DNA from: Primula veris
Lineage: Eukaryota > Streptophyta > Magnoliopsida > Ericales > Primulaceae
Length of the DNA: 64,000 bases
Direction: 5' to 3'
Assembly (NCBI GenBank): GCA_963682055.1
Contig: OY821744.1
Location: 8,162,835-8,226,834, forward strand
In this document: positions 21,401 to 52,802 of the stretch, piece by piece
How the letters are laid out: every line of letters starts with the position of its first letter
Numbering within the stretch: position 1 is the first letter of the stretch
Program-made: the position numbers and the translations under genes
Notes under the pieces: model-generated
What the model was told of the DNA's origin: nothing
Databases searched by the model: none
The model's input: the letters and a program-made list of their open reading frames with translations, nothing else

Positions 21401-22282
21401 CGGGGGCGGTGAAAAGGAGAACGAAATCTTAACCAGTTGATCACCATTAATTCCGAACTTAAAAGACCAAACAATTTCATAGTTTAAAATAAGACCTAAA
21501 CATTTGGAGAGCTAGATAGTTAATTTCCAGTGATTGTACCACTACAATTCTTATTCGAATTAATCAGATTCTTTTTAGAGCTATTGGTCATCTCACCTTT
21601 GTCAATGAATCAATTGTCAGTCGTTATACCCTTGTCATTTAAGCCACTTATATAGTAGCCAACATTTGCTATGCATGCAGATCTCAAAATATATATATGA
21701 AATAACTATATCAGTAACAATCATTTTACCAATAAACTGACATAATCGATTTGATTATTCTGCTCTTTCCATCATGCATTTTATTTCTGGTTTCTCCATA
21801 AATACTAGAATAATGAATCAAGTTATACGGAATGGCAAACCTTTGAATCAGTAAATTGTTCACCAATAGTAAATAGTAAGATGTGTGGTTATAGGTTTTT
21901 CACCACAAACATTTTTTAGAACATGCTTTCAGAAAGCTTAGTTTACCCCCACAATTACCCGGAAATATGGACATTCACTATACGAATCTCATTACCTTAT
22001 TTTCCTTTGAAGAATGATATAATACAATAATACATTATTGTATGATGTCTAATTATTTCACTGACTCAAGAAAACAGGTAGCATAACTTAAATTAATAAT
22101 CAACATGGAGAACAACAAATTAAATAATATGTGATTTCAATTCATAATGACAGCAGTGTGTGCACATAGATTTATTCACAGTGGATCCGTAGTTTTGATT
22201 GGTTGACTCGTGTATTATATATATTTTACTTTAAATCAGCTAAATTTGTACTATTAATTAGTCTAAGTTTTGGTGTTTTATC

Positions 22283-22777
22283 TGTTGGGTACGTTGTAAA
22301 TAAACACAATAATTTCTACGAAAAAGAAATGGACAAATAAACAGAAAATGGTTTTCTCAAATATAAAATTATCAATTACAAGAATTAACGTAAAATAATG
22401 TAAATGATACCGAAATGGACTAAAGTCCGAGACGAGGTAACTGCAAGCAGTTTCCCTTAAACGATATTTGCCCCGCCACCTCTGCTTCTGGCTACATGGG
22501 GCACTTCGTTCCCAAGGTACAACGTCTATCACATGTGACTCGGCGGAAACGGCACCGAGCCACGGTCGGGCCGTTGGTGGTGCGGTACTCTCTCTCTATA
22601 TGTATGCATATGTGTTTGTGTGTGAATGTGTGTATGACATGTATTTTTCTTTGTCTTTAAAAAGCCTTTTAAAAATGTAACTCATGAAAGCCATCAATAT
22701 GGGGATATAAATATTTTGAAACCCCTACAACTTAATTGCATTCAAAACAAAACAAAACCAAAGGTTTTTTTCCAACA
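22283..22777 (-). repeat. 3' LTR of element A
   Basis: 495 bp, in - orientation TGTTGGAAAA...CCAACA. It contains a block (22431-22527) shared with the LTRs of element B, including the ACTG-loop-CAGT hairpin (22440-22451) and the pairing segment (22456-22469). Confidence 0.92.
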
Positions 22778-23269
22778 ATCCCCCACATGAATGCAATCAT
22801 TAAACATGCACAGTGCAACTAAATGCAATCGAGAGAACCACGAGAATTCACTGCATAAGGACAGGTAGCGCGCGCCTTGAACCTGCCATAGTGATGTAAA
22901 ATCTGATATGCTACTATTGGGTAGCCTTAAAGCCTTGAACCCTTTAGCGTTTGTGCATACCAGGGTAATACTCACACAATGTCCTCTCTACACCACTTAC
23001 TAAGCCCTTTGGTTGTTGTCCATATTTGGCCCTGGACTGCCTTGGCAAATTCAACCGAGTGCTCTAGTGATTTAGCCCTAGATCATCACATAGTATCGGC
23101 CATACACACTCGTTATAGGTGATTTTCAAGTCAAGGGTGTCCTGACTCACCCCACTCGACCTTCGAGATACTTGATTCATTAAGAGCCTCATGCTCACCC
23201 TTAAAATGGTACAGGTCTATCACTCTTTCATCATAGAAATGGGCTGAGAATTTATGTTCTCGAGTGCTT

Positions 23270-24130
23270 TGTTCGGTTACCCGCACAATTCAGTTTCCCA
23301 TTGAACCCGAGACTGAAGTTTCCAGTTCAGGTTGGGTTACCTATGCGAAGGTTTCCAATTTATTGGGCTTCAAACCCCATTTCCCTCGATGATGCTTCAA
23401 CTCCTCCACGAGTCAAGCATTTTGTATATGGATCCGCATTATTATCCTTAGACCTTGCAAAGTCTAGGGATACCACAATTTTTGCTAGCAATTCCTCTTA
23501 CGGATTTGTGTCTCCGACGAATATGTCATGACTTTGTCGGGACTTTCCATTATACAAATTATTCTGATCCCGTTTAATAACTGACTGACTGCAGCAGTAC
23601 ACGTTTATTGCGGAAACAGATTTTGGCCACTTGGAATACCTCCCAAGACTTCTCAGCCAATCTGCCTCTTCTGTAGCTTGATTCAACGTTATGAATTCTA
23701 ACTCTACAGTTTCTCCAACTATGCAGGTCTAGTTTACAGACCTCCATAAGACTGCAACCTCTTTTAAATACAAACATATCCACTAATGGACCTTGTACTG
23801 TTAAAGTTCGAGATACACTTGGTATCTAAAATACCCTCCAAACATTTTGGATATCTCGTATAACGCAGTTCATGATTGGCAGTATACCTCATGTATCTGA
23901 GAAGCCTCATTGGCAAACCTACTGAGTCTGCTCACTGAGTTGGCTATAACTGGTCTAGTGCAGTTCTTGACGCACAAGAGACTACCTATGATAAGTTAGG
24001 TGTTTGTTTTAGTCCATATAACAACTTAACAAGTTTTCGCACCTTGGCTTACTTTACACGGAACCACGACCCAATGGGTTGTTCCTAATTCTCTAGATCT
24101 CCATTTATAAGACACATGTTCTCATTAATT
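23270..24130 (-). pseudogene. Decayed Copia pol 3' end (RT C-terminus / RNase H) of element A
   Basis: On the - strand, short frames resemble the C-terminal pol of element B: one at 23498-23686 has [19 protein letters not shown] and YNGKSR, and sequence near 23930-23990 is the diverged counterpart of the element B region near 42550-42640. Frameshifts and stops separate the pieces, so there is no functional product. The stretch 22791-23270 matches the noncoding 3' region of element B (43233-43760). Confidence 0.7.
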
Positions 24131-27100
24131 AATGATGCGTCCTTTTTATAGAGATTAGAGTATAGACATTAAAATTATCAAAACCGTCAGTTTTACTTAA
24201 AGTAATTGACTTTATTTCTCACGTGCCTATTAACCTCATTGTTGATGGCATCTTCCCATATACACATTATATGGATAACATTGATTATTTCAATATCGTC
24301 GATTCACCTTCACTCATGAAGGTCAAGGGACAAAGGAAGTTTCAATACTTACCCTTTTACCATGCTGATGCACTTCATGTTCCTTAAAAGATTCACTTTC
24401 CACATTTTTCCAGCACCGTTTGAGTGTTCACTTGTCTTGGGTAGCGTAATGCTTTGAACCCTCAACGTATTGGTCACACTCGCCAGGCGTTAGAGTTTTG
24501 CGGAAAACTTCTCTTTTAGAAAGTATGCTTCTCGGGCATAGAACAATGTTCTATATGCACTTTAAAGCCATATGCCTTATGCACTAGAAACCGATCAGCA
24601 CTATATTTTGTGCTTATCCGATGAACACACAATCTACCGTTTTCGATCCTATCCAAATCCTTCAAGGAACAAGATTGAGATCTTTCTTAGGTAGTACCAA
24701 ACTTTCACGAACTTATAGTCAGGCACCATGCCTTCTATAATTCTGACTGTTTGGTCCAACTTCCTAAGCGATAGTTTGTTCAACACATAGCTTGCGGAAA
24801 GCTCACTTCCCGTACAAATTCAGAGTTTAATCATGAACTTATCAACATGATATTCATCGTTTAAGAACTACATTTTTTGCTCGAGAGCATAATAAGTCGT
24901 TCTTTAACGATTGGTGTCATTCCATCAACACAATTATGTGAACGGTGTCTCATATTCACCGTTTCAATCACACTGATCATGTATTCATATCCATGTGAAT
25001 ATACCATTTCGGAACTAGTTAGACAATATCTAACACTTCCAAAAATAGTCTATCATTTAATAATTAACACTTAATCATTGGATTAAGTTGGTAGATTAAC
25101 ACAACAGAACATCCATGATTAAACATGTTTTCTGACAAACCTTAATCCTCAACAATAGAATTCACGTATTCATTCTTACTTGAATGAATATCTCGACTGA
25201 TTTATCTTTACTTCTCATCAAGTAGACATATCAGTGTTTAATACATCCATCAATAAATTGAGGAAATATCTTTTAAACCCTTCTTGGTTTTGCACTCATC
25301 TCAAATGCATCGAACCATTTGGTTATGTACTCCGTTCGAAAACTTCGAACTGAAGACTTAGCAATACATTGCTTCAAACACAAACTCATATTTGTGTTTC
25401 AATTTAAATAATAGATTTAGAAAAATAAAACATTTAATCTTTTATATTTTCATCACCTACTATATCATGTCAAATCAGTGACTTGGTTGAATAATTCAAC
25501 ATGTCATTATTGACCACAAGAGTATCGACTAAAATGCTCATTTTGAACAAATAGTCACTCATGTATTGCTACAAACAAGCAAGCTTATCACAATTTGATC
25601 CTAGTGTTTTGGCTACCGAAAGGCTACTAGCCTTTAGGTTTCAAAACCACTATTCATGATTCAGATTTGTATGCTTGCACTTGTTAGTGGATTTCCAAAC
25701 GTTTAAAACGTTTTCACACATTAACGCCCCCACAGTTCGTGCATTCCCTTTTGTCCTCACTCAGAACATGCACACTATTATAGAGAAACTTAATCGATTT
25801 CAATGTGGTAAATGAAACGATATCATTTATTTCAGACGTTTTAAGTCCATACCACTGAACCGTTAGGTTTTCTCCCACTCGCCCGTAGGCGCTTTTGGGT
25901 ACGTTTAGATTCTCGATCTACATGATCGACGGGTTACCCCCACATTTGTGGGACCCTCGGGGTTCTCCCCCAATAATAGTAATATATTATTACTCAATTA
26001 CTATTCTCAATAATAGCAACCACAACATATTCATAATATGTTATTTCAACAAGTTAATAATATGTTATGTCAACAAATTATTAAATGTTCTTTCAACAAA
26101 CTAATAAAATGTTAATTCAACAAATTATTAAATGTTATTTCAATAAAATAATAAGATGTTATTTCAACAAATAATAAAATAGCCGATATTTGTTTATTCT
26201 TAAAATAAACTCAACGACCATTTATAATTTGTCAATCATCAAATTATTTGCTCTTGGATGAATCAAGTCGATTATTAAATAACCTTTCATCCAAATATGT
26301 AACCGTTTCGTCATTGCAATTCGTAGATAGCTAATAACGCTCTCCATAAATGCCAACAACGACTGTCGTTACAATAATTTATAACTCTCCAAATTAAATT
26401 GCGATTAATCACAATTAATAAGAAGTTATAAATACTCGTCATTAATCTTATTAATGATTACCGTTATAAAATTTTGTAACTCTTCAAATTAAATTGCAAT
26501 AAATCACAATTAATAAGGATACCAACCATTATATCACCACATTAGTGTTTTTAATAATAGTGATTTCGAATTTGTAACCCCCGTCATTAATATGCACTCA
26601 TGCAAAATTAATAGGAGTTACACCGGCACCCACAATGTTCTGGTCAGTTCCAGCACCCATTGTGTTCCGGACATTTCCCGCAGGAAACTGTTTGTTATCT
26701 CAAATAACAAACACGCACAATCTAATTTCGAAAAATGAAACTAAAACTCCTCCTTCGCAAACACCATATTTCCATAACCACGCATGGTTTCAAGAAACTG
26801 ATTTTGCAAGAGTATTCTAGTTCATTCCCGAAAAAGATTATCAAATTCTGAAAGATTTATTCAGCCGTAAACACCAGATAAATCTGATTTTACACAGAAC
26901 AATCTCAGAATTCAATCAGTTCTGTCGTAAGCCCCAAATTCTGAAAAATCAGAAAATGATTTTACAAGAACTATTTCGAAACTAGTTCTTTCGTAAGCCC
27001 CAAATTAATGGTTTTACACGAACTATTTCGAAAATCAGCAATCCTCCAATTCCTTGTAGAGATCCATGTCTACATAAATACTCATCTGAAATTGTTAGTC

Positions 27101-28127
27101 ATTTTATTAACATGAAAAGAATAAACATGTATAAATCACTAACAATATAAATATATCATCTTCAAACAAATAAAACCATTAAATGTAATTAACCAAAATT
27201 CAGATAATATTACGGCATGGTCTTTACATCCACATACATATTACAAACGGTTACCATAATAAACCACCAATAAAGGCAATCAATATGGTATTAGTGAAAA
27301 AGAAACGGATGTTAGTTCATGGAAAGGGAAAGCCAATGCATACAGATAAAACTTCTGCTACAGCTATAACACCGAACCCTGCATCAACTAATTAGGACCA
27401 TGAGGTGAACAACACAGTGGGCAACAGAATATCTTCTATTGTTATGCACATGTATTTTTTCTATATAGTATAACATCAATAAAACATTATGTCTCATATA
27501 TACCAGCTTTCTTTCCATGCATGGTGTCACATGTATTTTTTTCTATATATTATAACATTAACATCCTTCTTGAAATCATGAGTGTAGTGTGAGCCTGTGA
27601 CCCAAGAATGTGTGCTGTTTCATTTTACAAACCAATTTTCCAACAATAACATGTAAATAGCTTTTCTATATCTCTGTGTACGTGAGTATTTCTAATAACT
27701 ATGATTAACCATTTAATCACCAAAATCATCACAAAATAAAATATAGATTTTCTCAAAATAATCATATTCTCACAAAGCAACCAAACATGCTCGTATGTAA
27801 AAAATTAAAAATAGCAATAAACATATTACTAAACATACATACGATACAATACAAAAGATGCATGCACACATATTACACAAAACTCAAATGAGACCGTTTA
27901 AAACCGAAAATAAGGATTTTCACAAAACCCAAAAAAAAAAAAAATTAAAAAAACCAAACGAAAAACGCCTTCGACAATTCAATCGGAAACACCAATTTCT
28001 TAAAACCAAGGTTTGTTAGAAAATGATTTTCCAAAAAATTGTCTTAGCCACGGAAATAATTTTCTGTTTATCCAAACACCAAAATTATTGTATTAACGTA
28101 CAAAACATAAAAAATATCGTTTAAGAT
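24131..28127 (-). other. Non-coding interior of element A
   Basis: About 4 kb without a recognisable gag, protease, integrase or intact RT on either strand. AT-rich, with short tandem repeats at 26037-26180 and a duplicated segment around 26380-26520 (ccaaattaaattgc, atcacaattaataag). A shared tcgtaagccccaaatt phrase recurs near 26929 and 26992. It behaves like the filler of a large non-autonomous LTR derivative. Confidence 0.6.
26037..26180. repeat. Degenerate 28-30 bp tandem repeat
   Basis: About five units of the type aatgttatttcaacaaatta, each with a few changes, inside element A. Confidence 0.75.
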
Positions 28128-28622
28128 TGTTGGGTACGTTGTAAATAAACACAATAATTTCTACGAAAAAGAAATGGACAAATAAACAGAAAATGGTTTT
28201 CTCAAATATAAAATTATCAATTACAAGAATTAACGTAAAATAATGTAAATGATACCGAAATGGACTAAAGTCCGAGACGAGGTAACTGCAAGCAGTTTCC
28301 CTTAAACGATATTTGCCCCGCCACCTCTGCTTCTGGCTACATGGGGCACTTCGTTCCCAAGGTACAACGTCTATCACATGTGACTCGGCGGAAACGGCAC
28401 CGAGCCACGGTCGGGCCGTTGGTGGTGCGGTACTCTCTCTCTATATGTATGCATATGTGTTTGTGTGTGAATGTGTGTATGACATGTATTTTTCTTTGTC
28501 TTTAAAAAGCCTTTTAAAAATGTAACTCATGAAAGCCATCAATATGGGGATATAAATATTTTGAAACCCCTACAACTTAATTGCATTCAAAACAAAACAA
28601 AACCAAAGGTTTTTTTCCAACA
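28128..28622 (-). repeat. 5' LTR of element A
   Basis: 495 bp and, by eye, the same sequence as 22283-22777. The conserved block is at 28276-28372, with the hairpin at 28285-28296 and the pairing segment at 28301-28314. The first internal bases (28127 downward on the - strand) read ATCTTAAACGATAT. Confidence 0.92.
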
Positions 28623-28627
28623 TTATC

Positions 28628-29925
28628 TTCAGAATAGTTAGTTGTCTAAATGTATGATGTCTTTATATCAGAGTAGTTATTTGTCAGGCTAGTATCTTTC
28701 ATTTAGATATTAGATTTGAGTTCTTTTGTATACTTATAACACTGGTTTGGATTTCTTTTGATTTTCTTTTCGGGGTGAGATTTTCGGTACAAGAAAAACT
28801 TCATTTAGTATTAGAATTTTTTTTCGGTTATGTTGCTAAAGTGATTGTGGTTAAATTTTATCAATAGGTTAACAACAAATTATGTTGCTATTTGTTGCTA
28901 AAATTTAGTCACAACCACTTTAACAACATAACTCAAAAAGTTTTATGATACTAAATGAACTTTTTTTTTTTTTTTTTTTTTTGCCAGTTACGCATAGTTG
29001 GAGGGCATCCGTGCCTATATGTTATTTTATTATTCTAGATCCAGTAGCATTTAAACTTGTACTAACACACACTATTATTTATAATAATGAGTATTTTTCT
29101 GAAAAAATAAATTAAAAAACTAGTATTAAAGTACCATGTCTTTCCATGTATGATGTCGTTGCCAGTTTGTTAGCTCAATTTGAGTTTGTGGTTCTTTTAT
29201 TTTCTTTGTAGGAAGCTAGGGTCAGTCTGGTCGACACCTAGCCATACTTGTATGCATATTTAGCCTTCGAGCATTGTTACGAGCCTTTGGCTCGATCGGC
29301 TATAATAGCAAGCTTACCTTCTGGGAAAAAAAACTGTCTAAACTACGATATTATATATGTGGTCAAAGAAAACCTCCTATGCATTCGTAATTAATTGAAA
29401 CAAATCTTATGTATACGTAAAGAATTACACATTTTAGGACTAAGAATGTAACCTATCAAGCCGAGTTTTATAATTGAACTTAATTAACAACTCGAGGACA
29501 AATTGTATTTTATAATGGTTTGTTAAGAACAACACTACATTGTTTTTTCGTTTATTTCAATTTAAAAGTTTTCTGAATATTGGATTTTTTGTGTATAAGC
29601 TACAAGGGTCGTTTTTACCAACTGATAGCTAGCAAGCGAATAAACTATGAAGCAACACATGAATAAATAAAAAAAATACAAATACTATATTTCACCAATA
29701 TTTATAGAGCTATATGAGTATTTATAGCTAAACTATAATATATATACAACCTTTATTGATCGACTAAATACAGTACATCTCCATCAAACCTGTCTTACTG
29801 TCTAGCTAGCAGTTCCTTCGTTGCACAAATATTTAAGAAAGTGGACAATAGTTGGGACGGACGGAGTATATAAAAACAAAGGTAACTATCATGACTTTAT
29901 CTCAAATCAATGAATAACGCGGGTT
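28628..29925. other. Intergenic DNA downstream of the NAC gene
   Basis: Apart from the MITE at 28797-28962, no gene is seen. The stretch 29170-29333 ends ggctcgatcggctataatag, then aagcttaccttctggg and a short A-run, which could be a non-LTR element 3' end; this is weak. The NAC 3' UTR should occupy the last few hundred bases before 29926 (read on the - strand). Confidence 0.4.
28797..28962. mobile_element. MITE with 70-bp terminal inverted repeats
   Basis: The left arm (acttcatttagtattagaat ... aaagtgattgtggttaaatt) is the imperfect complement of the right arm (aaatttagtcacaaccactt ... gatactaaatgaactt). The whole unit can fold back on itself. It is preceded by tacaagaaaaac, reminiscent of CACTA-type ends, and followed by a long T tract. 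Confidence 0.75.
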
Positions 29926-32900
29926 TCAAATGATAATCAAACTATTATCATTGCCATACTCCATGATCTCCTCTAAATTTGTAGGTACCCCAATATCACC
30001 TACATTGCTTTCTTCAAAATCCATATCGAACAAAAAACCATACTCATAATCATTTGCAGGGTTAGTTTCCATAACTGTAAGATCAATTCTCGGTGTAGAT
30101 AGGAAACTAGGACTTTTTAATAAAGAATCTTGAATGGTACCATTTGAGATTTGGCTTTGATATGGTGGGCTATGGGAGAAACTAGGGTTAACTTGGTGTT
30201 CATATTTACAAGTGAATGTTTGGTCTGTAGAAGGAGATCCAATCAAGAATGTTTGGCATTGATATGGTGGGCTATGGGAGAAACTAGGGTTAACTTGGTG
30301 TTCATATTTACAAGTGAATGTTTGGTCTGTAGAAGGAGATCCAGCCAAGAATGTTTGGCTTTGATATGGTGGGCTATGGGAGAAACTAGGGTTAACTTGG
30401 TGTTCATATTTACAAGTGAATGTTTGGTCTGTAGAAGGAGATCCATCCAAGAATGTTGACATTGAGCTTTCAAACTCATTTTGAGGGGTAAGTCGGTTGT
30501 TGTTTTCTCCATTTCCCTTGTGAAATACCCTGCATAAAACCCAATCTTCCTGCAAAAGTGAGAAAGTATAAGAAAATATGAGCATAATTAATATTTAGCA
30601 ACGTAATATTTTTTTAGTTAGAGCAATTATCAGACACCGATATGCATAGCGCAACATGGAGAGATGTTGTCATTTGACCCGCAATCTTGCAACTCATAGT
30701 CATGATATTTTGCCTAATTTAAATACTATGTCTGGATTATATATCATGCTTCTTATATTTACAACTAATAGTAAGAAAGATTGCCAAGAATGTATACTTT
30801 TCTAATTACAGAAATGAAATGACTTCAATTTTTAAGTCTCATAAACTTGTAACTAGCTAGCAATATTGTTTAAGAGATCTATACAAGCTCATCAGGCAGT
30901 TGTAAATATCCCTAGGTAGTTACATGTTTTTTTAGCATGTCTTAAGTCCTCTTTAAGCTATTGCATAAAACACATTTAATTTAAACTATTGTTAAATTTG
31001 TCCTTTTAGCCATGTGAAAATGACTCGTCGATATTTACATAAATAATATCGGTTAAATATGTTAAAACAAACCTTGGGAGGCGTGTAAGGGTTCTCAAGG
31101 CGAAACTCATGCATAATCCAACCGGTTTTGATCCCATTGGGTGCCCTATTCTGGTAAAACACCAGTGTCTTTCTCATCCCGACAACCGCTTTAGTTGTAG
31201 GACTCCAGATCAAGCGATCTTTTCCGGTGGCTTTCCAGTATCCAGTTGTGGTTGCACGGTTAGTGCGGAACCCAGTGGCGTACTTACGGTCCCTAAAGCT
31301 GAAGAAATACCACTCGCTTAAGTTGAGCTTTGCCCCATCTGCCAATCATTGGTTTTACAAGATACAGATTTTGTTAGGTAATTAACTACAAAACCATGTG
31401 GATAGGTTTTGGAAGTTAGAAAATATGATACAAGATTCCAAAAGCGCCGCATATTAAAGTACAAATATATGATATTATAAGCAATGGAAAGAGAATAATT
31501 AAGGGGCTCACTTATTAAATAGAGTGATCCATGCATGTGACCATATGAATATTAAAACTATTCTCGTGACTAATCGATATTTATTATGATAATTGAGGTT
31601 ATATCCTAATTTTGATTTTCTGTTTTTGCATTCTAAAGTGGCGGATTGTGACATGAAGTAATATTTAAAAAATAAATGCATAAAATATAAATCATTATGC
31701 ATTGCAAAGCTAAATCCAAGCTGTAGTACTGTAATAGAAAAAAAAACATATACTATACAAGTTTCCCGTATAAATTTAACTCTTTGGTCAAGTAAAGTAA
31801 AAAAAAAAACTTGCAATTGCATCAGTTGCAAATTAAAGTGTTACCGAAACAGATCTTTAGAAGACGAGATCAGGTAAACTGAAAAAATATTTCACAAAAA
31901 GTCCGTATTAAAAGTTGGCCTAAGTTAAACATAAATATGATGGGGAAAACGATAGAAAAGATTCTCAGACCGTCACACTAGCTAGTAGCTTAATTGTCTC
32001 CAAGTAATTATTATTTTTAGTCTTATTATAATTCAACAGCGTTCACAATAATTTGATGCGAAGTTGCCAGTGTATCCCAATGATTTTGTAATTAAATTTA
32101 ACTACCCTCTATGTTTTGGATAAATGCAGACAATATTGTACTAGCTAAGGTAGTATTGGTGAAAAAGTTTCAGCTTGTAATGTTGAAAGATTTTCTCAAA
32201 CACAATCTCCCACAAATATTAGTAAAATGAAAACATTATTTTGTGGTTTTTGATGGTTCATAAGTTTCTTGTCGTTTAATTTGGTGAAAGTTTTCCAATA
32301 AGTTGTCGTGCGATCTCTTATACATAATTGATTTACATAATCTGATTTTTGTCTGCATATTAATTATGCAATTGTACGTTTGGCTTTTACGTACTTTACA
32401 GAAGCTATAAAATCCTTCAGAATTTTTTTTCGAACTTTCAGAATAAAATTTCCATTACCCTAAATTTTAGGTGCTTATAACATCTTAGAGAAGAAAAATA
32501 AATTTTGTTGCCAAGAATTTCCACCCATCTATATGTATATATGACTGAATCTCCAACTGATGAACTAAGGAAGCAAGTTTTCAACAATAAACATTCCCCA
32601 GCTAGAAAATGTCATATTATAAATTTTATAGTCTTCCATATATTGAAGAAAATTCAAGGAAATCCATGAAAAAGAAAATTGTATGCAAAATATTGCAACA
32701 TTTAATATTTTTTTCAAAATAAATAATGAGCGTGTATGTTTGTTTCATGCTATAAATGAAATATCTTCACAAAAAGAAAATAGAGATGTTTGCTTATTAA
32801 ACATTATGATCTCTCATGTACTTTGAATCATTATCCTTTCTTTGTGTAATATCTAAAAAAAAAAAGAGTAGGGTTTCCATTAATTATTCACATGGTTCGA

Positions 32901-37188: not shown

Positions 37189-37193
37189 GAAGG

Positions 37194-38600
37194 TGTTGGA
37201 AAAAAAAGGTAGGAAAACATGTATTTTATACATGGTTGTTCCAAGTGGTCAGTGACCATCTTTGAGTCAATTTTCAATGCGACTCCTCAGTTTTTCTGAG
37301 GCCATACTCAATGCGGTTGAGTAGCTCGTGTGACTAGCTTCGCAACGGTATATCGCATGACCTATTCGGAGGAAAGGTGTGAATGATAATTGGACTCGAA
37401 TGTTGGTACTCGAAAAAGGGAAAAAACCGAAATCTGGAAAATGGAGTAGAGAGTGGGAATAAACCATGAGAGTTATTCCACATTGGAAAATCAAGAGAGA
37501 TTTTTACTCTATATATACAAGTTCATCCCATGTAGTTGATAAACTAATTAAGTCCACATACCTATGAGTGGGTTAGTGTGTACCACACACGCACGCGCTC
37601 GCTCGGGCCTCGGGTCACGGGACGCGGGCCGCTGGCCGCGGGATGCGGGATTTCGGATTTCGGATTTGGTGAATGTCTCGGGTCTTGAGTCTTGGGTCTT
37701 GTACTAAATATGAAAAGGAACTTTTGCATATTTGCAAGAGCAGTCCCTAGAGTTCCAGAAAGTTTGAAACTCCAGCAGTAATGGAGGCGGATTCTGTGGA
37801 TGTAACTCCCAGAATTAAATGACCAATAAATTCTGCGGTTTCAGAATTTCCTCTATAAAGAGGCAGCCATCCCCTCACATTCTAACACACATGAAATCAG
37901 TATCTTTTTTCTAACAATAAAAAGCTGCATATATTTTTTGTTCATAGCATTTAGAAACCAGAGAGAACCACCTAAAAGCTCGACTTAAACTCGTCGCCAG
38001 TTTCCGGCAAGTCTTCCGAGAGACGTTGTACCTTGGGATCGAAGCGCCAACGCAACCAGAAACCTTAAGGTGGTTGGGCGAATATCGGTTAAGGGCATAC
38101 TGTTAACAGTAGCCTCGTCCATATTTATTTACATTCTGTCCAGTTTCATTTTTCCGCATTTAAATTCAGTTTTTACATTCTGTCCTTTCAATTCAGTATT
38201 TTAATATTCTGTCCTTAGCTGTAGCTTTTATATTCTGTATTTACTTTTCTGTAATTAGTTTAAAGTACTGTTTCTATTATGTAATTTCATTTCTGTAATT
38301 AGATTCTGTAATTAGATTAGTTTCAATTTAGTCCTGTATTTTAAATTCATAACAGAACAGTCCGGCTGTTAAGTTTATACTTTCCAGTCCGGCAGTTTCT
38401 TCTAATTGCAAAACAGTACATCATATTATTAATTAATAATAATCTGATAACGTTTGTTTTATTTACTTTTCAGTACCTACATGTTGTAATCAATTTATTG
38501 TATTCCATTTGGAAATTAATAAAGATTACCCTGGTTTTATTTAATTACTGTTTAGTCCTTTAATTCTTGTTAATTGTTATTTCGTACACGGAAACCAACA
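37194..38600 (+). repeat. 5' LTR of element B
   Basis: 1407 bp. TATA-type motif CTATAAAG at about 37853-37860. The conserved leader block at 38021-38120 contains the pairing segment ATATCGGTTAAG (38082-38093) and the hairpin ACTG-TTAA-CAGT (38099-38110). The G-rich heptamer region at about 37610-37700 is short here. Confidence 0.93.
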
Positions 38601-38951
38601 ATCTTAACCGATATCCTGTTGTTTCTTTCGTGTATTGATTAATACAATTATTGATTTTTTATAAGGAATAATGCTTTCTTGTTTTCAATTCTAAATTATA
38701 TTAGAAATTGAATTACAAAGAATAAATTCCAAACAGTTTTTATTTTTTATTTTCTTGTTGATACCAACCGTATTGGTATTCAATAAGAATCGTTTTAATC
38801 CTTTTAATATCAACCGTATTGATATTCAAAAGGATAAAGAGTTTATTTTATTTTGTTTGATAATTTTTTTACAAACCCAAATATCAGTTGTGGTGTTTGT
38901 TTATAGAATTTATTGTACGCGTATCTCATACGTCTTGTGTTGTCGTTTCAG

Positions 38952-40247
38952 TTGACAAACACGCCGCCTATTGAGTTGCCTATCGGGGGTGAGCATGACC
39001 CAGTGGTTGGTGGGCCTGTCCATAACACTAGGGGTGATGCGAATGTGGTGGCTAACGCCGATGACGTAGCTGCAGCGGCTGAGGCCGCCGCGGCTGCGGC
39101 CATGGCGGATGCTACGGCCAAAGCTGAGGCTGCGGCCGAAGCAGCGGCCACGGCCAAGGCCGCAGCTAAGGCTGCGGTAAGAGCCAAGGCTGCGGCCAAG
39201 GGCAAGGCACCGATGTATTCGGCTGTGCCTACTTTGCCGACTTCTCATCTGGAGAAACCGGAAAAATTCAGGGGAGACAACTTTAAACGTTGGCATCAAA
39301 AGATGTTGTTTTATCTCACGACCCTGAATCTGACCAGGTTTCTTAAGGAGACTGCTCCCGTCCTAAGCGAGAACGATCTGGACGAGCAGTCGTTCTCTGC
39401 GGTTGAGGCATGGAGACATGCTGACTACCTATGCAAGAACTATATCATGTGTGCTCTAGATGACACGCTGTTCAGTGTTTTCGAGCCCAAAGCTACTGCA
39501 AAGGAGCTGTGGGAGACTCTCGAAAATAAGTACAAGGTGAATAACGCTGGCACAAAGAGATTTGTTGTCACGGACTTTCACGAGTACCGTATGACTGACA
39601 GCAGGGGTGTCATGGAGCAAGTTGAGGAGCTCCAACTGATTTATCGCCGCCTTGAGGCTGAGGGGCTAGTTATTAATGAGCCTTTCCAGATGGCACTCAT
39701 GATTGAGAAATTGCTGCCGTCTTGGAAAGACCTTCAAAACTACCTGAAGCACAAGCGGAAGGAAATGAGGTTGGAGGGGCTCATTGAGAAGCTCAATATC
39801 GAGGTGAGCAACCATCGTTCCGTGAGGAGAGTCGGTGGTGCTGTCATCCCGATGGCAAAGGACAATGTGGTCGAAAGCTCCAACGTCAAACGGAAACGTT
39901 TTGACACCGGAGGCAGTGCTGTTGTCGCAAAGAAATTTGCGGGAACCTGCTTTGTGTGTAACAGGACCGGCCATCGTGCCACGGACTGTTATGACAATAA
40001 AGGCGCTGCTAAGCCTAAGCCCCCCCCCCCCCCCCCCCCCCCCCCGAGGAACTTTAAGGGCAAGGGAAAGAGGAAAGCTCAGCTCAGGCGCATCTGGCCG
40101 AGGGAGGACGAGATGACGACCACTTTACTGCTGTGGTCTCTGAGGTCAATCTCGTGGGGAGCAACCCCAAAGAGTGGTGGCTGGATACCGGCGCCACAAG
40201 CCACATCTGCTCAACAAGGTGGATGTTTAAGACCTACGAAGCGGTAG
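38952..40247 (+). CDS. gag: Gag polyprotein of element B
   Basis: The frame is open from 38913, but the upstream part resembles an intron end (gtcgtttcag|TTGACAAAC) and the first in-frame ATG is only at 39102, so the start is uncertain and may involve splicing. An Ala-rich N-terminus (39061-39200) precedes the Copia gag domain ([51 protein letters not shown]). A CCHC zinc knuckle ([14 protein letters not shown]) follows near 39946, then a proline run encoded by poly-C. From 40088 to the stop at 40247 the frame is not gag-like: a 5-bp duplication at 40078-40087 has shifted it away from protease. Confidence 0.85.
40020..40045 (+). repeat. 26-nt poly-C tract in gag
   Basis: An uninterrupted run of C encoding about nine prolines after the zinc knuckle. 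The length of such a run is prone to replication slippage and to sequencing error. Confidence 0.95.
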
Positions 40248-43222
40248 AGGGAGAAAGCTGCTTCATGGGAAATTCTGCTACTTCCAAGGTGGAAGGAAAA
40301 GGAATGGTCGTGATGAAGATGACCTCGGGAAAAGAGCTGAGGTTGATAAATGTGCTTCATGTTCCGGATATCCGCAAGAATCTGGTATCAGGATCGGTGA
40401 TGGTGAAGAACGGGTTTAAACTAGTTTTAGAATCCGATAAAATTGTAATCACCAAAAATGGTGTCTATGTAGGCCGTGGCTATATGACCAACGGCATGTT
40501 TAAGTTGAACGTAGGGACACCTGCTCCCAATAAAGGTGATAAAGCTGAGGTTAGCACAAGTACTGTAATGACTGTTGCCCAAGAGGCCACTAAAAATTCT
40601 GAGTTTAATTATTTATTTGAGTCATTTCATTTGTGGCATGGTAGATTAGGTCACGTGAATTATAATTCTTTAAAGAAATTAATTTCACTAAAACTAATAC
40701 CAAATTTCGTTTTTAATAAGCAACACAAATGTGAGATTTGTGTAGAAGCAAAGTTAACGAAATCATCGTTTCAACATGTTGAACGAGAAAGTGAACCTCT
40801 CGATCTAATACACACGGATGTATGCGACTTAAAGTTTATACAAACGCGAGGAGGGAAAAAGTACTTTATCACTTTTATAGATGATTGTACTAGATACTGT
40901 TACGTTTACTTAATGAGAAGTAAAGACGAAGCAGTAGAAAAATTCGCTCTTTATAAGACCGAAGTTGAAAATCAACTCAATAGGAAAATTAAAACATTGA
41001 GAAGTGATAGAGGCGGTGAATATGAATCACCGTTTGAGCAAATATGCGCTAAAAGCGGCATTATACATCAAACCACAGCCCCATACACTCCCGAGCAAAA
41101 TGGGGTTGCTGAGCGTAAAAATAGAACGCTAAAGGAAATGATGAATGCTATGCTAATCAGTTCTGGGTTACCCCAGAACATGTGGGGGGAAGCGATACTT
41201 TCCGCTAACTATGTTTTAAACAAGTTACCACATAAGAAGCGAGAAAATACTCCATATGAATTATGGAAAGGTCATCAACCCAGTTATAAGAACCTACGGG
41301 TTTGGGGTTGTCTCGCAAAGGTCCTAGTTCCCACTCCTAAGAGGATGAGAATTGGTCCTAAGACGGTGGACTGTGTGTTCATCGGATATGCACAGAATAG
41401 TAGTGCATATCGGTTTCTCGTGCACAAGTCGGACAATCCCGATGTGCACGTAGATACATATATGGAAAGCCGAGAGGCCTCTTTCTTTGAAGATATCTTT
41501 TCCTAGAAATTACCTACAACTGTAGCAACTGAAGAGTTGAACAGTGAAGGAAATATGGGGGCAAGTGAACCGACAGAGGAAGAGGAAGAGGAAGAGCCTC
41601 GGCGCAGCAAAAGGGCAAGGAAGGAAACTTTCTTTGGACCTGATTTCCTAACCTTCATGATTGAAGGCGAACCGGTGACATATAAACAAGCTATGCCAAC
41701 ACCGGATTCCCAATATTGGGAAGAAGCTATTCAAAATGAAATTGAATCAATCATGCAAAACCACACTTGGGAACTAGTGGATCTTCCGAAAGGATGCAAG
41801 CCCCTAGGTCACAAGTGGATCTTCAAGAGGAAGTTAAAGGTTGACGGCACGATTGAGAAATACAAGGCGAGACTTGTAGTAAAAGGATTCAGGCAAACGG
41901 AAGGTGTCGATTATTTTGACAAGTATGCCCCTGTCTCCAGGAAAACGTCTATCCGAATCGTCATTGCTCTCGCAGCTTTGTTTGATATGGAAATACATCA
42001 AATGGATGTAAAGACGACATTTCTAAATGGAGAACTGGAAGAAGAGATTTACATGGAACAACCGGAAGGGTTTGTAGTTCCTGATAAAGAGCACCAAGTG
42101 TGCAAACTTGTAAAGTCTCTATATGGACTCAAACAAGCGCCAAAGCAATGGCACGAGAAGTTTGATAGAATTATGCTATCAAACGGTTTTCACATTAATG
42201 AGTGTGATAAATGTGTCTACTCTAAAGGAAGTGGAAGAGACTGTGTTGTAGTCTGTCTCTATGTGGATGACATGATCATAATTGGGAGTAATGATAGAAT
42301 CAGCTCCACAAAGAAAATGTTATCACAACACTTCGATATGAAGGACTTGGGTATAGCTGATGTAATACTTGGTATGAAGATTACCAAAACATCAGAAGGG
42401 TATGCCTTGTCCCAAAGTCACTATGTTAAACAAGTTTTAGACAAGTTTGACAAGGACAGTAAAGCTATGTCAAGAACCCCAATTGAGTTCAACTGTAACC
42501 TGAAAAAGAATTTCGGTAAAAGTGTGAATCAATTAGAGTTCTCTCGAGTCATAGGCAGTCTCATGTATATAATGAATTGCACTAGACCAGACATAGCAAA
42601 CTCAGTGAGTAGACTGAGCATGTACACCAGTAATCCAAATGAGGAACACTGGAAGGCCATAATGAAACTTCTCAGGTATATGAGGTTTTCAGCCGATTAC
42701 GGGCTGCACTATACCAGATATCCAGCGGTACTGGAAGGGTATTCAGATGCCAACTGGATATCAGACTCCAATAGCACAAGGTCCACGAGTGGATATGTGT
42801 TTATAATGGGAGGAGCTGCTGTGTCTTGGAGATCCTCCAAACAAACATGTATTGCAAGGTCAACTATGGAATCTGAATTCATAGCGTTGGACCTAGCAAC
42901 CGAAGAGGCAGACTGGCTGAGAAGTCTATTGGAAGGAATTCCAATGTGGCCGAAACCTGTTCCCGCAATAAGCATGCATTGCGATAGTCAATTAGCTATT
43001 GCGCGGGCTCAGGATCATATGTATAATGGAAAGTCTCGACATATACGTCGGAGAGATAAATCCGTGAGGGAATTGTTATCCAACGGTGTGGTATCCTTAG
43101 ATTTTGTGAGATCAAAGAAAAACATAGCGGATCCATTAACAAAAGGCTTGACTCAAGTGGGAGTTGAGACGTCATCGAACGGAATGGGATTAAAGCCCAT
43201 TAAATTGGTGGCCCCCCCATAG
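40088..43222 (+). pseudogene. pol: Pol polyprotein of element B (protease-integrase-RT-RNase H), one TAG stop
   Basis: A single frame runs from the gag junction to TAG at 43220-43222, interrupted only by TAG at 41504-41506 between integrase and RT. Protease: [11 protein letters not shown] (about 40178). Integrase: HHCC zinc region ([15 protein letters not shown]) and the catalytic Asp/Asp segments HTDVCD and RSDRGGEYE. Reverse transcriptase: [31 protein letters not shown] and the active site LYVDDM (about 42260). RNase [27 protein letters not shown] and [10 protein letters not shown], so all acidic positions are present. The order PR-IN-RT-RH is diagnostic of Copia. Apart from the stop and the upstream frame break it looks intact. 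Confidence 0.92.
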
Positions 43223-43775
43223 GCAACCCAACCTAAACGGAATCTTTCCTAATAGGTTCAAAGGGAAACTGAACTGTGGGGGCAACCGAACAAAGCACTC
43301 GGGAACCTAGAGTTCCCAGCCCATTTCCGTGATGACAGAGTGATAGACATGTACCATTGTAAGGGTGAGCTAGAGGCTCTTAATGATCCAAGTAACTCGA
43401 CGGTCGAGTAAAGTGAGTCAGGACACTTTCGACTTGGAACACCTATAACGAGTGTGTAAGGCCGGTACCATGTGATGAGCTTGGGCTAATTCACTAGAGC
43501 ACTCAGTTGAAGTTGCCAAGGCAGTCCAGGCCAAATATGGACAACAACTAAAGGGCCTAGTACGTGGGTAGAGAGGGCACTGTGCGGGTGCCATTCTGGG
43601 ATACACAAAGCTTGATGGTTCAAAGCTTTACAACTACCTAATAGCAGTATTCTGGGTGGTATTCCGCTACGGTTCAAGGCGCGCGCTACCTGACCTTAGG
43701 CAGTGAACTTTTGCGGTTCTCTTGATTTGTATTTAGGACATGGGCTTTCGAGCCAATTGCATTCATGTGGGGGAT
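43223..43775 (+). other. 3' noncoding region and polypurine tract of element B
   Basis: 553 bp between pol and the 3' LTR, ending in cattcatgtgggggat, the polypurine tract used to prime plus-strand DNA. A diverged copy of this region is in element A on the opposite strand (about 22778-23270). Confidence 0.85.
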
Positions 43776-44227
43776 TGTTGGAAAAAAAAAGGTAGGAAAA
43801 CATGTATTTTATACATGGTTGTTCCAAGTGGTCAGGGACCATCTTTGAGTCAATTTTCAATGCGACTCCTCAGTTTTTCTGAGGCCATACTCAATGCGGT
43901 TGAGTAGCTCGTGTGACTAGCTTCGCAACGGTATATCGCATGACCTATTCGGAGGAAAGGTGTGAATGATAATTGGACTCGAATGTTGGTATTCGAAAGA
44001 GGGAAAAAACCGAAATCTGGAAAATGGAGTAGAGAGTGGGAATAAACCATGAGGGTTATCCCACATTGGAAAATCAAGGGAGATTTTTACTCTATATATA
44101 CAAGTCCATCCCATGTAGTTGATAAACTAATTAAGTCCACATACCCATGAGTGGGTTAGTGTGTACCACACACGCGCTCGCTCGCTCGGGACTCGGGACT
44201 CGGGCCTCGGGTCACAAGACGCGGGCC

Positions 44228-44276
<49 letters not shown>

Positions 44277-45277
44277 TTGGGATTTGGGATTTGGGATTTG
44301 GGGAATGTCTTGGGTCTTGGGTCTTGGGTCTTGGGTCTTGGGTCTTGGGTCTTGTGTCTTGGGTCTTGGGTCTTGTACTAAATCTGAAAAGGGACTTTTG
44401 CATATTTGCAAGAGCAGTCCCTAGAGTTCCAGAAAGTTTGAAACTCCAGCAGTAATGGAGGCGGATTCTGGGGATGTAACTCCCAGAATTAAATGACCAA
44501 TAAATTCTGCGGTTTCAGAATTTCCTCTATAAAGAGGCAGTCATCCCCTCACATTCTAACACACATGAAATCAGTATCTTCTCTCTAACAATAAAAAGCT
44601 GCATATATTTTTTGTTCATAGCATTTAGAAACCAGAGAGAACCACCCACTAAAAGCTCGACTTAGACTCGTCGCCAGTTTCCGGCGAGTTTTCCGAGAGA
44701 CGTTGTACCTTGGGATCGAAGCGCCAACGCAACCAGAAACCTTAAGGTGGTTGGGCGAATATCGGTTAAGGGCATACTGTTAGCAGTAGCCTCGTCCATA
44801 TTTATTTACATTCTGTCCAGTTTCATTTTTCCGCATTTAAATTCAGTTTTTACATTCTGTCCTTTCAATTCAGTATTTTAATATTCTGTCCTTAGCTGTA
44901 GCTTTTATATTCTGTATTTACTTTTCTGTAATTAGTTTAAAGTATTGTTTCTATTATGTAATTTCATTTCTGTAATTAGATTCTGTAATTAGATTAGTTT
45001 CAATTCAGTCCTGTATTTTAAATTCATAACAGAACAGTCCGGCTGTTAAATTTATACTTTCCAGTCCGGCAGTTTCTTCTAATTGCAAAACAGTACATCA
45101 GATTATTAATTAATAATAATCTGATAACGTTTGTTTTATTTACTTTTCAGTACCTACATGTTGTAATCAATTTATTGTATTACATTTGGAAATTAATAAA
45201 GATTACACTGGTTTTATTTAATTACTGTTTAGTCATTTAATTTTTGTTAATAGTTATTTCGTACACGGAAACCAACA
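43776..45277 (+). repeat. 3' LTR of element B
   Basis: 1502 bp. It matches the 5' LTR apart from scattered substitutions and a 95-bp net gain, apparently from expansion of GCGGGAT, TTGGGAT and CTTGGGT heptamers (44228-44374). The pairing segment is at 44759-44770; the hairpin at 44775-44786 has loop TTAG instead of TTAA. Confidence 0.93.
44228..44374 (+). repeat. Heptamer minisatellite in the 3' LTR of element B, G-quadruplex-like
   Basis: Seven GCGGGAT units (44228-44276), then TTGGGAT units, then about nine CTTGGGT units with one variant (tgtgtctt). GGG every seventh base gives repeated G3-N4 spacing, the pattern that can form G-quadruplexes. The 5' LTR has only about two GCGGGAT units and three CTTGGGT-type units. 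Confidence 0.93.
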
Positions 45278-45282
45278 GAAGG

Positions 45283-46504: not shown

Positions 46505-47750
46505 TGTTAGGACCAGATTTCTGGTCTAAATATTGTTAATTGTCTATTGGTTTTAACTAAATAAATCCTAACTGTTATTAAGAACTAAGACAGGATTGAC
46601 AGGTTCCAAGTACCAGTTGCAACCTCAGTTGCAACCTCTGCTGACAGGTTCCAAGTACCAGTTGCAACCTAAGTTGCAACCTATGCTGACAGGTTTCAAG
46701 TACCAGTTGCAACCTCAGTTGCAACCTCAGTTCAAACCTGTTGTTCAGCAGAATTCTGTTTAGTTCCATTTATCTGCATAACCATTCTTTAATATTATTA
46801 CTTGTTTTAAAGTATGCAGGATATATTCTCATAAGGTCTTAAACGTTTTATATGTGTTTATTGAGAATATCAAAGTGTTAAGGAAATATGTCTTATTAAA
46901 GATATAAAGAGATTAGTTTATAAGGTTGTTTCCTTTTGAATATGATCTCTTCTCTTATGATTATCCTTATCACTTATTTCAATCTTTGTTCCCTATCAAA
47001 TCAGTATGATATGTTTAAGATTGAATAAAATTAGGAGTTAATGTCTTACATGAATATCTAAAAGATATTATCTTGCCAAGATATGATCTTTTTATATGTT
47101 TCCTTGTTATAGGAAAATACTAACTCCTACAATCAAGCTTGTTATTTAACAGGTATCAACCAATCATGATTGAAGTCTATTCACGCTGAAGAATCACGTA
47201 TTACATGGAAAGACTAAAGCCAATCATTAAAGTCAAAAGCAATCACAAAAGACCTTCAAAGATAGAAGATTGTTTTTGCTTATATATAGTTGATAACTAA
47301 GCTTGTAAATGTGTGTGTTCTAAATTATAAAGAACTTATTTTCTAGAGAGAATACACGTGAGCTTTAAAAAGAAAACAATGGTGGGATGCCATTGATTTA
47401 TAAGTGATAGTTATAGAGTAGGAGCAATATAGTGATAGGCAGAAAAACCTAGAGGGAGTCTAAGTTTTTCATTAAGACTTGAGTCATATATTGTAAGCTT
47501 TTTATAATATCATAATCTGGGTAAGTGCCCCGGAGACGTAGCCTAGTTAGGTGAACTCCGTTGTTAAATGTGCATGTGAATTATTTTCAAGTACATTTAA
47601 TTTTAAAACAGTTCTGTCCATTAATACACTTGGTTCCAACTGCAGTTCCAACATTACTTGGAACCTTATACACTTGGTTCCAACTGCAGTTCCAACCCCA
47701 CTTGGAACCTTACTGCAAAACTGCATCTAGAACAGCGGATAGGAATTTCA
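46505..47750 (+). repeat. 5' LTR of element C
   Basis: 1246 bp. It carries a cluster of CAGTTGCAACCT-type 12-mers and AGGTTCCAAGTACCAGTTGC units at 46600-46739, and a second cluster of GGTTCCAACTGCAGTTCCAA units at 47628-47711 close to its 3' end. Confidence 0.93.
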
Positions 47751-47752
47751 AT

Positions 47753-47764
47753 TGGTATCAGAGC
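47753..47764 (+). promoter_or_regulatory. Primer-binding site of element C (initiator-Met tRNA)
   Basis: TGGTATCAGAGC, two bases after the LTR end, is the standard plant Copia PBS complementary to the 3' end of initiator methionine tRNA, where minus-strand DNA synthesis starts. Confidence 0.95.
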
Positions 47765-47809
47765 TTCACACTAGTTCTTACTTAGTGTGGATCCTGTGTT
47801 CTAGTAACA

Positions 47810-51925: not shown

Positions 51926-52802
51926 ATTTGAAATGAGTGGTGGAGGTGAATTGACTTACTTTCTAGGATTGCAAGTTAAACAGAATGAGAAAGGGATTTT
52001 TCTATGTCAAAGCAAGTATGCAGACAATCTTGTTAAGAAGTTTGGTCTAAGTGAGAGTAAAGAAAAGAGAACTCCTATGAGTACTACCCTTAAACTGTCT
52101 AAAAATGATAAAGGAAAAAGTGTTTGTCCTAGTCTTTATAGATCCATGATTGGAAGTTTGCTGTATTTAACTGCTAGTAGACCAGACCTTTGCTTAAGTG
52201 TAGGAGTTTGTGCCAGATATCAAGCAAATCCTTTAGAACCTCATCTTCTAGCTGTCAAAAGAATTCTAAGGTATGTAAAAGGAACACCTCATCTAGGCCT
52301 ATGGTACTCTAAAGATACAAACCATTTTCTTAGTGGCTACTGTGATGCAGATTGGGCAGGAAACATAGATGATAGAAAGAGTACTTCTAGTGGTTGTTTT
52401 TATTTTGGAAACAATCTTGTTTCTTGGTTCAGTAAAAAGCAAAATTGCATATCTTTATCTACTGCTGAGGCAGAATATGTTGCAGCTGGAAGTGGATGCA
52501 CTCAACTAATTTGGATGAAACAAATGTTAACTGATTATAATGTTAAGCAAGAGATATTAACTCTGTTTTGTGATAACAAAAGTGCTATAGATTTGGCTAA
52601 AAATCCAGTTCAACATTCCAGAACCAAACATATTGATCTAAGGCATCATTTTATTAGAGAACTAGTTGAAGAAAAGAGCTTAATTTTAGAACATGTTTCA
52701 ACTGAAAGACAATTAGCAGATATTTTCACAAAGCCCCTTGATACAAACAAGTTTGAATCATTAAGAAGTGACATAGGGGTATGTCATTATCAATCTAATT
52801 GA
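51924..52802 (+). CDS. pol (3' part): RT C-terminus and RNase H of element C, out of frame with gag-pol
   Basis: It continues pol in another frame: SGGGELTYFLGLQVKQN, SLLYLTASRPDLCLSVG, then RNase H with GYCDADWAGN, STAEAEYVAAGSG, LFCDNKSAIDLAKNP and QLADIFTKPLD. All RNase H acidic positions are present. It probably cannot be made from this copy without frameshifting. Confidence 0.9.
   Translation, partial: EFEMSGGGELTYFLGLQVKQNEKGIFLCQSKYADNLVKKFGLSESKEKRTPMSTTLKLSKNDKGKSVCPSLYRSMIGSLLYLTASRPDLCLSVGVCARYQANPLEPHLLAVKRILRYVKGTPHLGLWYSKDTNHFLSGYCDADWAGNIDDRKSTSSGCFYFGNNLVSWFSKKQNCISLSTAEAEYVAAGSGCTQLIWMKQMLTDYNVKQEILTLFCDNKSAIDLAKNPVQHSRTKHIDLRHHFIRELVEEKSLILEHVSTERQLADIFTKPLDTNKFESLRSDIGVCHYQSN

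What the first reader, a model, noticed from the sequence alone, without database searches (positions are those of the whole stretch)
28112..28314. Compensatory base change keeps the same long-range pairing in element A
Element A (- strand) has LTR segment AAATATCGTTTAAG (complement of 28301-28314 and 22456-22469) and internal CTTAAACGATATTT (complement of 28112-28125), again starting two bases after the LTR and complementary over 14 nt. Relative to element B one LTR base differs (G at 38088 versus T on the - strand at 28306), and its partner differs to match (C at 38608 versus A on the - strand at 28120). A G-C pair became a T-A pair with pairing intact. Covariation between two otherwise diverged LTR families is evidence that the pairing itself is selected.
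Basis: seen in the sequence. Interest (0 to 1): 0.88.

Follow-up and report, generated by a model that had tools for sequence, protein, structure and literature searches.

The report
Self-priming RNA module in plant retrotransposons
Two jumping genes in this plant genome, and their relatives, appear to start copying themselves with a short piece of their own RNA as primer, and matched mutations between families support that this piece pairs with two other stretches of the same RNA.

Summary
Elements A and B are plant Ty1/copia LTR retrotransposons. An LTR segment P (A: AAATATCGTTTAAG; B: GAATATCGGTTAAG) is complementary to the primer-binding site (PBS), which starts two bases after the LTR. 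The T-A versus G-C swap is real.

I extended it to 103 sequences (101 genomic places) in five families. Three positions of P differ between families, and the PBS changes with them. On a tree the 11-bp core has 4 double changes on internal branches; the null mean is 0.3. An all-pairs covariation test was not significant.

Two features go beyond the finding. P also covaries with a second partner, X, about 40 nt upstream inside the LTR, in a conserved RNA domain. The PBS lies in the loop of a predicted hairpin across the LTR border.

Element A has no coding capacity, yet has identical LTRs and keeps the module, so it acts in cis.

Best explanation: self-primed reverse transcription, already predicted for the plant TAR lineage (Neumann 2019). 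P-PBS covariation may come from copying the primer into the PBS, so it does not alone prove selection; X-P covariation does point to selected structure.

The parts
28128..28622 (-). Element A 5' LTR (495 bp, TGTTGG...CCAACA); TSD GATAA at 28623-28627 and 22278-22282
   Evidence: 100% identical over 495 bp to 22283-22777; ends and TSD checked
22283..22777 (-). Element A 3' LTR
28301..28314 (-). Element A self-primer segment P (AAATATCGTTTAAG)
   Evidence: complement of PBS; covariation
28112..28125 (-). Element A PBS (CTTAAACGATATTT); 11-nt core 28115-28125
   Evidence: core as used
28351..28356 (-). Element A segment X (GAACGA), local partner of P (TCGTTT, 28304-28309)
   Evidence: folds; covariation; coordinates
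28275..28372 (-). Element A conserved LTR RNA domain: outer stem S1 (28368-28372 with 28275-28279), X-P helix, hairpin S3 (28343-28348 with 28314-28319), hairpin S4 (28284-28298)
   Evidence: lies in the 133-column block that is the only long A/B LTR similarity; RNAalifold (S1, X-P, S4; not S3); covariation
28083..28159 (-). Element A hairpin S5 across the LTR/internal border with the PBS in its loop (arms 28129-28159 and 28083-28107)
   Evidence: fold z -3.54
37194..38600 (+). Element B 5' LTR (1407 bp); TSD GAAGG at 37189-37193 and 45278-45282
43776..45277 (+). Element B 3' LTR (P copy at 44757-44770)
   Evidence: 91% identical to the 5' LTR over the gapped alignment
38080..38093 (+). Element B self-primer segment P (GAATATCGGTTAAG)
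38603..38613 (+). Element B PBS core (CTTAACCGATA), two bases after the LTR end 38600
38037..38042 (+). Element B segment X (GATCGA), local partner of P
38571..38650 (+). Element B hairpin S5 enclosing the PBS (arms 38571-38600 and 38617-38650)
   Evidence: fold z -3.23
38913..43222 (+). Element B gag and pol reading frames (copia gag, integrase, RVT_2), three separate frames

Best explanation
Elements A and B belong to a group of plant Ty1/copia retrotransposons that prime minus-strand DNA with a piece of their own RNA instead of a tRNA. The LTR segment P is held in a folded RNA domain, where its TCGNTT part pairs with X about 40 nt upstream. The PBS is shown in the loop of a long hairpin formed by the end of the LTR and the first ~50 internal bases. 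P swaps from X to the PBS. The RNA is cut just after P (...TTAAG|GG), and the freed 3' end is extended two bases inside the LTR border, which leaves the CA+2-nt end that integrase trims. When the plus strand is made, the primer is copied, so the PBS of the progeny follows P. Shown here: the complementarities, their positions and their covariation. Inferred: cleavage, priming, the swap and its order, and that P lies inside the transcript rather than at its 5' end.
For: Complementarity exact and far above chance, at the standard PBS place. 1538 genomic sites match CCAACANNCTTAANNGATA with at most 1 mismatch, against 37 for the reversed pattern. Five families (typical X/P/PBS): A GAACGA/TCGTTT/AAACGA and B GATCGA/TCGGTT/AACCGA, C GAGCGA/TCGCTT/AAGCGA, D GAACAA/TTGTTT/AAACAA, E GAACGG/CCGTTT/AAACGG. 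Of 101 genomic places with both parts, 87 pair over all 11 core bases (G-U allowed) and 97 over at least 10. On internal branches P-PBS has 4 double and 1 broken change against null means of 0.31 and 21.2 (reached in 1 and 0 of 1000); X-P has 3 double and 1 broken against 0.16 and 10.7 (0 and 0 of 1000); S1 has 4 double (0 of 1000); a tree without helix columns agrees. Leaving out the copies chosen by a PBS pattern (43 sequences left, L081 kept), P-PBS has 3 double (4 of 1000) and X-P 3 (0 of 1000). RNAalifold, given 22 sequences and no structure, predicts S1, X-P and S4 for the block, and P-PBS in place of X-P once the PBS is joined. With the PBS held unpaired, at least 6 enclosing pairs form in 88 of 88 distinct copies folded, and matched arms rank 1 of 120 assignments between families. 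Element A has 126-133 stops per forward frame and no open stretch above 83 aa, yet identical LTRs and this block kept. The neighbouring SIRE-like copia has a tRNA-type PBS (TGGTATCAGAGC).
Against: No single pair is significant in an all-pairs test with a tree null. 44 of 103 sequences were chosen by a PBS pattern that fixes 9 of the 11 core bases, and 5 by a P pattern, which lowers the count of broken pairs; slid registers also have few broken changes, so only the double changes are specific. All copies come from one genome; families C and E have 2 and 5 copies with PBS. In E the PBS matches P at the family's own position in 4 of 5 and X in 3 of 5. In the final set S3 and S4 have one double change each (101 and 159 of 1000 null trees reach it), and the CCTT/AAGG extension has none and 5 broken. 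Folding energies of the P domain alone are not unusual (z -1.37, -1.26). 155 of 2000 random windows give an enclosing stem of at least 20 bp, and the SIRE-like control gives 14. L037 carries an uncompensated change at the last base of P in both LTRs. No transcript, cDNA or cleavage data.
Confidence: 0.83

Rival explanations
1. Tf1-like form: transcription starts at the 5' end of P, so the primer is the first ~11 nt of the RNA. X and S1 are then upstream (U3) and are transcribed only at the RNA's 3' end, where X would hide the second copy of P.
For: P-PBS identity stops after 11-12 nt and variable bases follow at once, as expected if copying ends at an RNA 5' end. The Tf1 primer is the first 11 bases (PMC7175516, passages).
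Against: No TATA-like sequence 25-45 bases upstream of P in A or B (by eye); TATA-like runs picked by eye lie 125-153 bases upstream, and the shared A/B LTR block begins about 90 bases upstream of P. This is promoter logic only. In family B the border coincides with the end of the search pattern, so there it is partly a product of selection (odds lowered from 0.33 for this).
Confidence: 0.3
2. P-PBS covariation is made purely by copying of the primer into the PBS at each cycle, with no selection on the pairing as such.
For: Plus-strand copying of the primer is general in LTR elements (established knowledge, recalled). L037, with P changed in both LTRs but an unchanged PBS, fits a one-cycle lag. 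Variable bases lie at the copying border.
Against: Cannot explain X-P, S1 and S5 covariation, because those partners are not copied from each other. It is compatible with, not opposed to, the self-priming reading.
Confidence: 0.45
3. The complementarity serves something else, such as RNA dimerisation, packaging or genome circularisation, while a tRNA or tRNA fragment primes.
For: Retroelement leaders carry such signals (general knowledge).
Against: The PBS has no TGG start (complement of a tRNA CCA end) and differs between families at three positions, each matched by P. P's 3' end sits two bases from the LTR end in copies of all five families. No search against tRNA halves was made.
Confidence: 0.07
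4. Chance or shared ancestry, with no function.
For: All-pairs test not significant.
Against: Helix-level tree tests and slid registers, cross-family arm test; the block is the only long A/B LTR similarity and is kept in a coding-dead element.
Confidence: 0.02

Closest known systems
TAR lineage of plant Ty1/copia (incl. Houba, Osr-1), predicted self-priming: Neumann et al. 2019, PMC6317226 (passages seen)
   Same: Plant Ty1/copia with gag, integrase and RT domains, no tRNA-type PBS, and LTR-PBS complementarity.
   Different: The passages seen predict self-priming without giving primer structure, a second partner, a PBS hairpin or covariation; its additional files were not seen.
Tf1/sushi Ty3/gypsy elements (Tf1, Tj1, Tosmo): PMC7175516, PMC4600332, PMC10085805 (passages seen)
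   Same: Self-primer (11 nt in Tf1) in the LTR, PBS just after the LTR, and further duplexes between PBS-flanking sequence and LTR sequence downstream of the primer.
   Different: Ty1/copia rather than gypsy/chromovirus. In Tf1 the primer is the RNA's 5' end, and the passages describe no upstream partner that holds the primer; here X and S1 lie upstream of P.
Half-tRNA priming of copia (Osser, Bryco, Bianca; PMC6317226 passages)
   Same: Non-canonical PBS in Ty1/copia.
   Different: There the PBS matches half of a tRNA; here it follows the element's own LTR.
Fungal GalEa copia with a conserved hairpin site instead of a PBS (PMC5445492 passages)
   Same: Copia elements without tRNA PBS and with a hairpin at the PBS place.
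   Different: The authors report that they never detected an LTR sequence complementary to the hairpin; here there is one.

Membership tests
Ty1/copia superfamily | Copia gag, integrase and RVT_2 in that order between LTRs with TSD | tested here: met
   Element B: Retrotran_gag_2, rve, RVT_2, 5-bp TSD. Element A keeps only remnants.
TAR lineage | Self-priming type PBS instead of tRNA PBS | tested here: met
   lineage feature from PMC6317226
TAR lineage | RT/RH/INT phylogenetic placement with TAR references | not testable with these tools
   No lineage reference sequences at hand; the 120 protein hits listed carry no lineage names.
Tf1/sushi group | Ty3/gypsy chromovirus pol with chromodomain | tested here: not met
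   Pol is copia-type RVT_2; no chromodomain among the Pfam hits.
Tf1-type self-priming (mechanism) | LTR segment complementary to the PBS directly after the LTR | tested here: met
Tf1-type self-priming (mechanism) | Primer is the 5' end of the RNA | tested here: inconclusive
   No RNA data; promoter-like positions argue against it, the PBS border argues for it.
Tf1-type self-priming (mechanism) | Additional duplex between PBS-flanking sequence and LTR sequence downstream of the primer | tested here: met
   Predicted hairpin S5; prediction only.
Tf1-type self-priming (mechanism) | RT RNase H cleaves the RNA to free the primer | not testable with these tools
   Needs biochemistry.

The most novel reading that the evidence does not exclude
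A self-primer that lies inside the leader RNA, is held by a conserved upstream partner (X) and handed over to a PBS shown in a hairpin loop: a two-state RNA switch for starting reverse transcription, carried as a portable cis module by autonomous and coding-dead elements alike.
Probability: 0.45. Interest if true: 0.68.

Novelty: new variant of a known kind. Interest (0 to 1): 0.52.

Why it matters
In the papers I could see, self-priming in plant copia elements is a prediction from the type of PBS. Here five families in one genome give compensatory evidence for it, suggest a primer of 11-12 nt, and add a second covarying partner and a PBS hairpin. It also suggests that the cis signals for starting reverse transcription are kept by an element with no proteins of its own, and it gives a simple genomic test (three-way covariation X-P-PBS) for other plants.

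Tried and rejected
All-pairs covariation (APC-corrected G-test, branch-wise shuffles on a FastTree tree, 78 distinct sequences, 60 shuffles): no significant pair, best E about 2. Kept as a negative result; family structure dominates.

CCTT/AAGG extension of the X-P helix: no double change, 4 to 5 broken ones on the trees from all columns; not claimed. S3 and S4: double changes not significant in the final set, though S4 pairs are rarely broken; S3 is absent from the RNAalifold structure, and S1 is absent once the PBS is joined.

Relatives outside this genome: a protein scan of viral contigs found none. DNA patterns gave 0 and 4 viral contigs; the 4 show no matching P within 700 bases upstream (best 8-9 of 12), so chance. 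Other plants could not be searched for DNA.

Known RNA family: no Rfam match at gathering score in the window. tRNA genes in the window: none.

Rows dropped and selection: of 155 sequences (153 loci plus the window's A and B), 52 lacked the block or the PBS under my rules (solo or 3' LTRs, wrong places, short stretches, decayed copies). 103 were kept: 101 genomic places, since the window's A equals L002 and L038 equals L005 (by their coordinates; counts); 84 distinct. 44 of the 103 were chosen by a PBS pattern and 5 by a P pattern. Rules: P motif with at most 2 substitutions, X motif at most 5, PBS at least 9 of 12 to any family's PBS, not to the copy's own P. Two of the 103 fit no family, and L061 and L089 were put into family A by hand. 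Very different families are missed.

Uncompensated P changes: 5 of the 14 incomplete places followed; 3 private to the 5' LTR, 1 (L037) in both LTRs, 1 without a recognised 3' LTR. Four of the five (L061, L070, L071, L080) came from a search for changed P.

Papers: searches in the open-licence library listed no paper that by its title and shown abstract start describes RNA structure or covariation of a plant copia self-primer; subscription papers and supplements were not seen.

Full report
What is there. The window lies in a 436.5-Mb genome, a plant by its transposons, its U-box/ARM protein and the plant names among the protein hits; this is inference. Element B (37194-45277, +) is a Ty1/copia element with gag, integrase and RVT_2 frames, TSD GAAGG, LTR ends TGTTGG...CCAACA, and LTRs of 1407 and 1502 bp at 91% identity over the gapped alignment. 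Element A (22283-28622, -) has the same ends, TSD GATAA, and 495-bp LTRs that are identical. Its 5.35-kb interior has 126-133 stops per forward frame, a longest open stretch of 83 aa, and only degraded integrase, RT and RNase H remnants. So A is recent but cannot make its own proteins; it was presumably mobilised by a relative.

The observation. Every coordinate is right; the complementarity is 14 nt in A and 12 nt in B. The PBS starts two bases after the LTR, a usual place. A third copia in the window (46505-56655) has an ordinary tRNA-type PBS, TGGTATCAGAGC. A pattern for LTR end plus PBS occurs 1538 times in the genome with at most one mismatch, against 37 for the reversed pattern.

More families. 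Searching for P with other bases at the variable position, for PBS variants and for the LTR block gave three further families. C: P TCGCTT, PBS AAGCGA (L063, L081). D: P TTGTTT, PBS AAACAA (18 sequences). E: P CCGTTT, PBS AAACGG (5 sequences with PBS). So three positions of P vary between families, one of them with three states, and the PBS varies with them.

A second partner. Folding the LTR block puts P in a helix with X, about 40 nt upstream: typically GAACGA, GATCGA, GAGCGA, GAACAA and GAACGG in families A to E. X differs with P at the same three positions. E is the weakest: 9 of its 12 blocks that hold X read GAACGG, but of the 5 with PBS only 3 have the matching base. The fold of one of two E blocks tried did not show the helix. 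RNAalifold given 22 sequences and no structure predicts an outer stem, the X-P helix and a hairpin after P for the block alone (-12.9 kcal/mol; 100 column shuffles mean -0.6, sd 1.1). With the PBS joined it predicts P-PBS instead, keeps the hairpin and loses the outer stem. The two pairings of P exclude each other.

Statistics. 103 sequences from 101 genomic places carry block and PBS. Of the 101, 87 pair over all 11 core bases, G-U included, and 97 over at least 10. A tree-aware null that moves substitutions to other columns branch by branch, on 84 distinct sequences, gave these internal-branch counts of double, one-sided and broken changes: P-PBS 4, 1, 1 (null double 0.31, broken 21.2; reached in 1 and 0 of 1000); X-P 3, 2, 1 (0.16 and 10.7; 0 and 0 of 1000); S1 4, 3, 2 (0 and 1 of 1000). 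Slid registers gave no double change, but they too had few broken ones, so low broken counts partly reflect plain conservation. A tree without helix columns gave 4, 3 and 8 double changes for P-PBS, X-P and S1. Because 44 of 103 sequences were chosen by a PBS pattern, I repeated the test without them (43 sequences, L081 kept): P-PBS 3 double (4 of 1000), X-P 3 (0 of 1000), S1 4 (0 of 1000). Against this, an all-pairs scan on 78 sequences found no significant pair, because most variation falls on a few family branches. The A/B change alone would not have been convincing.

The PBS hairpin. With the PBS held unpaired, the last ~30 LTR bases pair with bases after the PBS in 88 of 88 distinct copies folded, by the criterion of at least 6 enclosing pairs (family medians 18.5-24, composition-shuffled means 6.5-11.9). 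The stems differ in sequence between families. Using 22 copies, own arms give the best total energy of all 120 assignments (-77.6, next -75.7), although the 5' arm of C pairs even better with the 3' arm of D. Dinucleotide-shuffle z-scores are -3.54 (A) and -3.23 (B). Single windows can do this by chance: 155 of 2000 reach 20 pairs, and the SIRE-like control reaches 14.

Border of the primer. In family D, whose copies were not chosen by a PBS pattern, PBS bases 2 to 11 do not vary in the 17 sequences tabulated and bases 13 and 14 do. In B the four bases after the 11-nt core are very variable (1.1-1.7 bits), but most B copies were chosen by a pattern that ends there. In A the core is followed by T-runs of varying length. 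This fits a primer of 11-12 nt that is copied into the PBS with an imprecise end. It also means that P-PBS covariation may be written by copying, and is then a record of primer use rather than of selection. X-P covariation cannot be explained that way.

Exceptions. Of five uncompensated P changes followed, three are only in the 5' LTR of copies whose aligned LTR parts differ by 4-6%, hence later decay; one 3' LTR was not recognised; one copy (L037), with LTR stretches 98-99% alike, has the change in both LTRs. The last fits a one-cycle lag, because progeny LTRs would take P from the parent's 3' LTR while the PBS follows the 5' copy (inference).

How it works. Most likely P is the self-primer of minus-strand synthesis, cut after ...TTAAG and extended from the PBS. 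The position fits: extension starts two bases outside the CA of the LTR end. Whether P is internal to the RNA or its first bases is open. TATA-like runs picked by eye lie 125-153 bases upstream of P and the shared LTR block begins about 90 bases upstream, which favours internal; the PBS border favours the RNA end.

What is known. Neumann et al. 2019 (PMC6317226, passages) predict self-priming for the TAR lineage of plant copia and cite an earlier proposal for Houba and Osr-1. Tf1 is the studied case, with an 11-base primer at the RNA 5' end and RNase H cleavage (PMC7175516 passages) and a three-duplex structure (PMC10085805 passages). So the kind is known. The domain with X, the PBS hairpin and the covariation are what this analysis adds, as far as the seven paper searches show.

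Noticed in passing
46505-56655 (+): A third, SIRE-like copia (my label) with LTRs about 97.5% identical, a tRNA-type PBS, pol split at 51925/51933 and an extra 428-aa frame (53757-55043) matching PF20167 Transposase_32.
   Followed up: partly
46597-46760 and 55526-55677: 45-bp tandem units (TGACAGGTTCCAAGTACCAGTTGCAACCT...) in the LTRs of the SIRE-like element, with different arrangement in the two LTRs.
   Followed up: no
37602-37665 and 44185-44297: GC-rich CGGGATG-type short repeats inside the AT-rich B LTR, longer in the 3' LTR.
   Followed up: no
28791-28968: Imperfect palindrome of about 178 bp (77%) just outside element A's 5' LTR, MITE-like.
   Followed up: no
30150-30457: Three 102-bp tandem copies (97-98% alike) within a 219-aa minus-strand frame (29926-30585) without Pfam match.
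   Followed up: no
L092, L145: B-type PBS with hairpin arms that look D-like, perhaps recombination between families.
   Followed up: no
L037 (C1:9250751): B-family copy near a 1432-aa open pol frame, with the last base of P changed in both LTRs but not in the PBS.
   Followed up: partly
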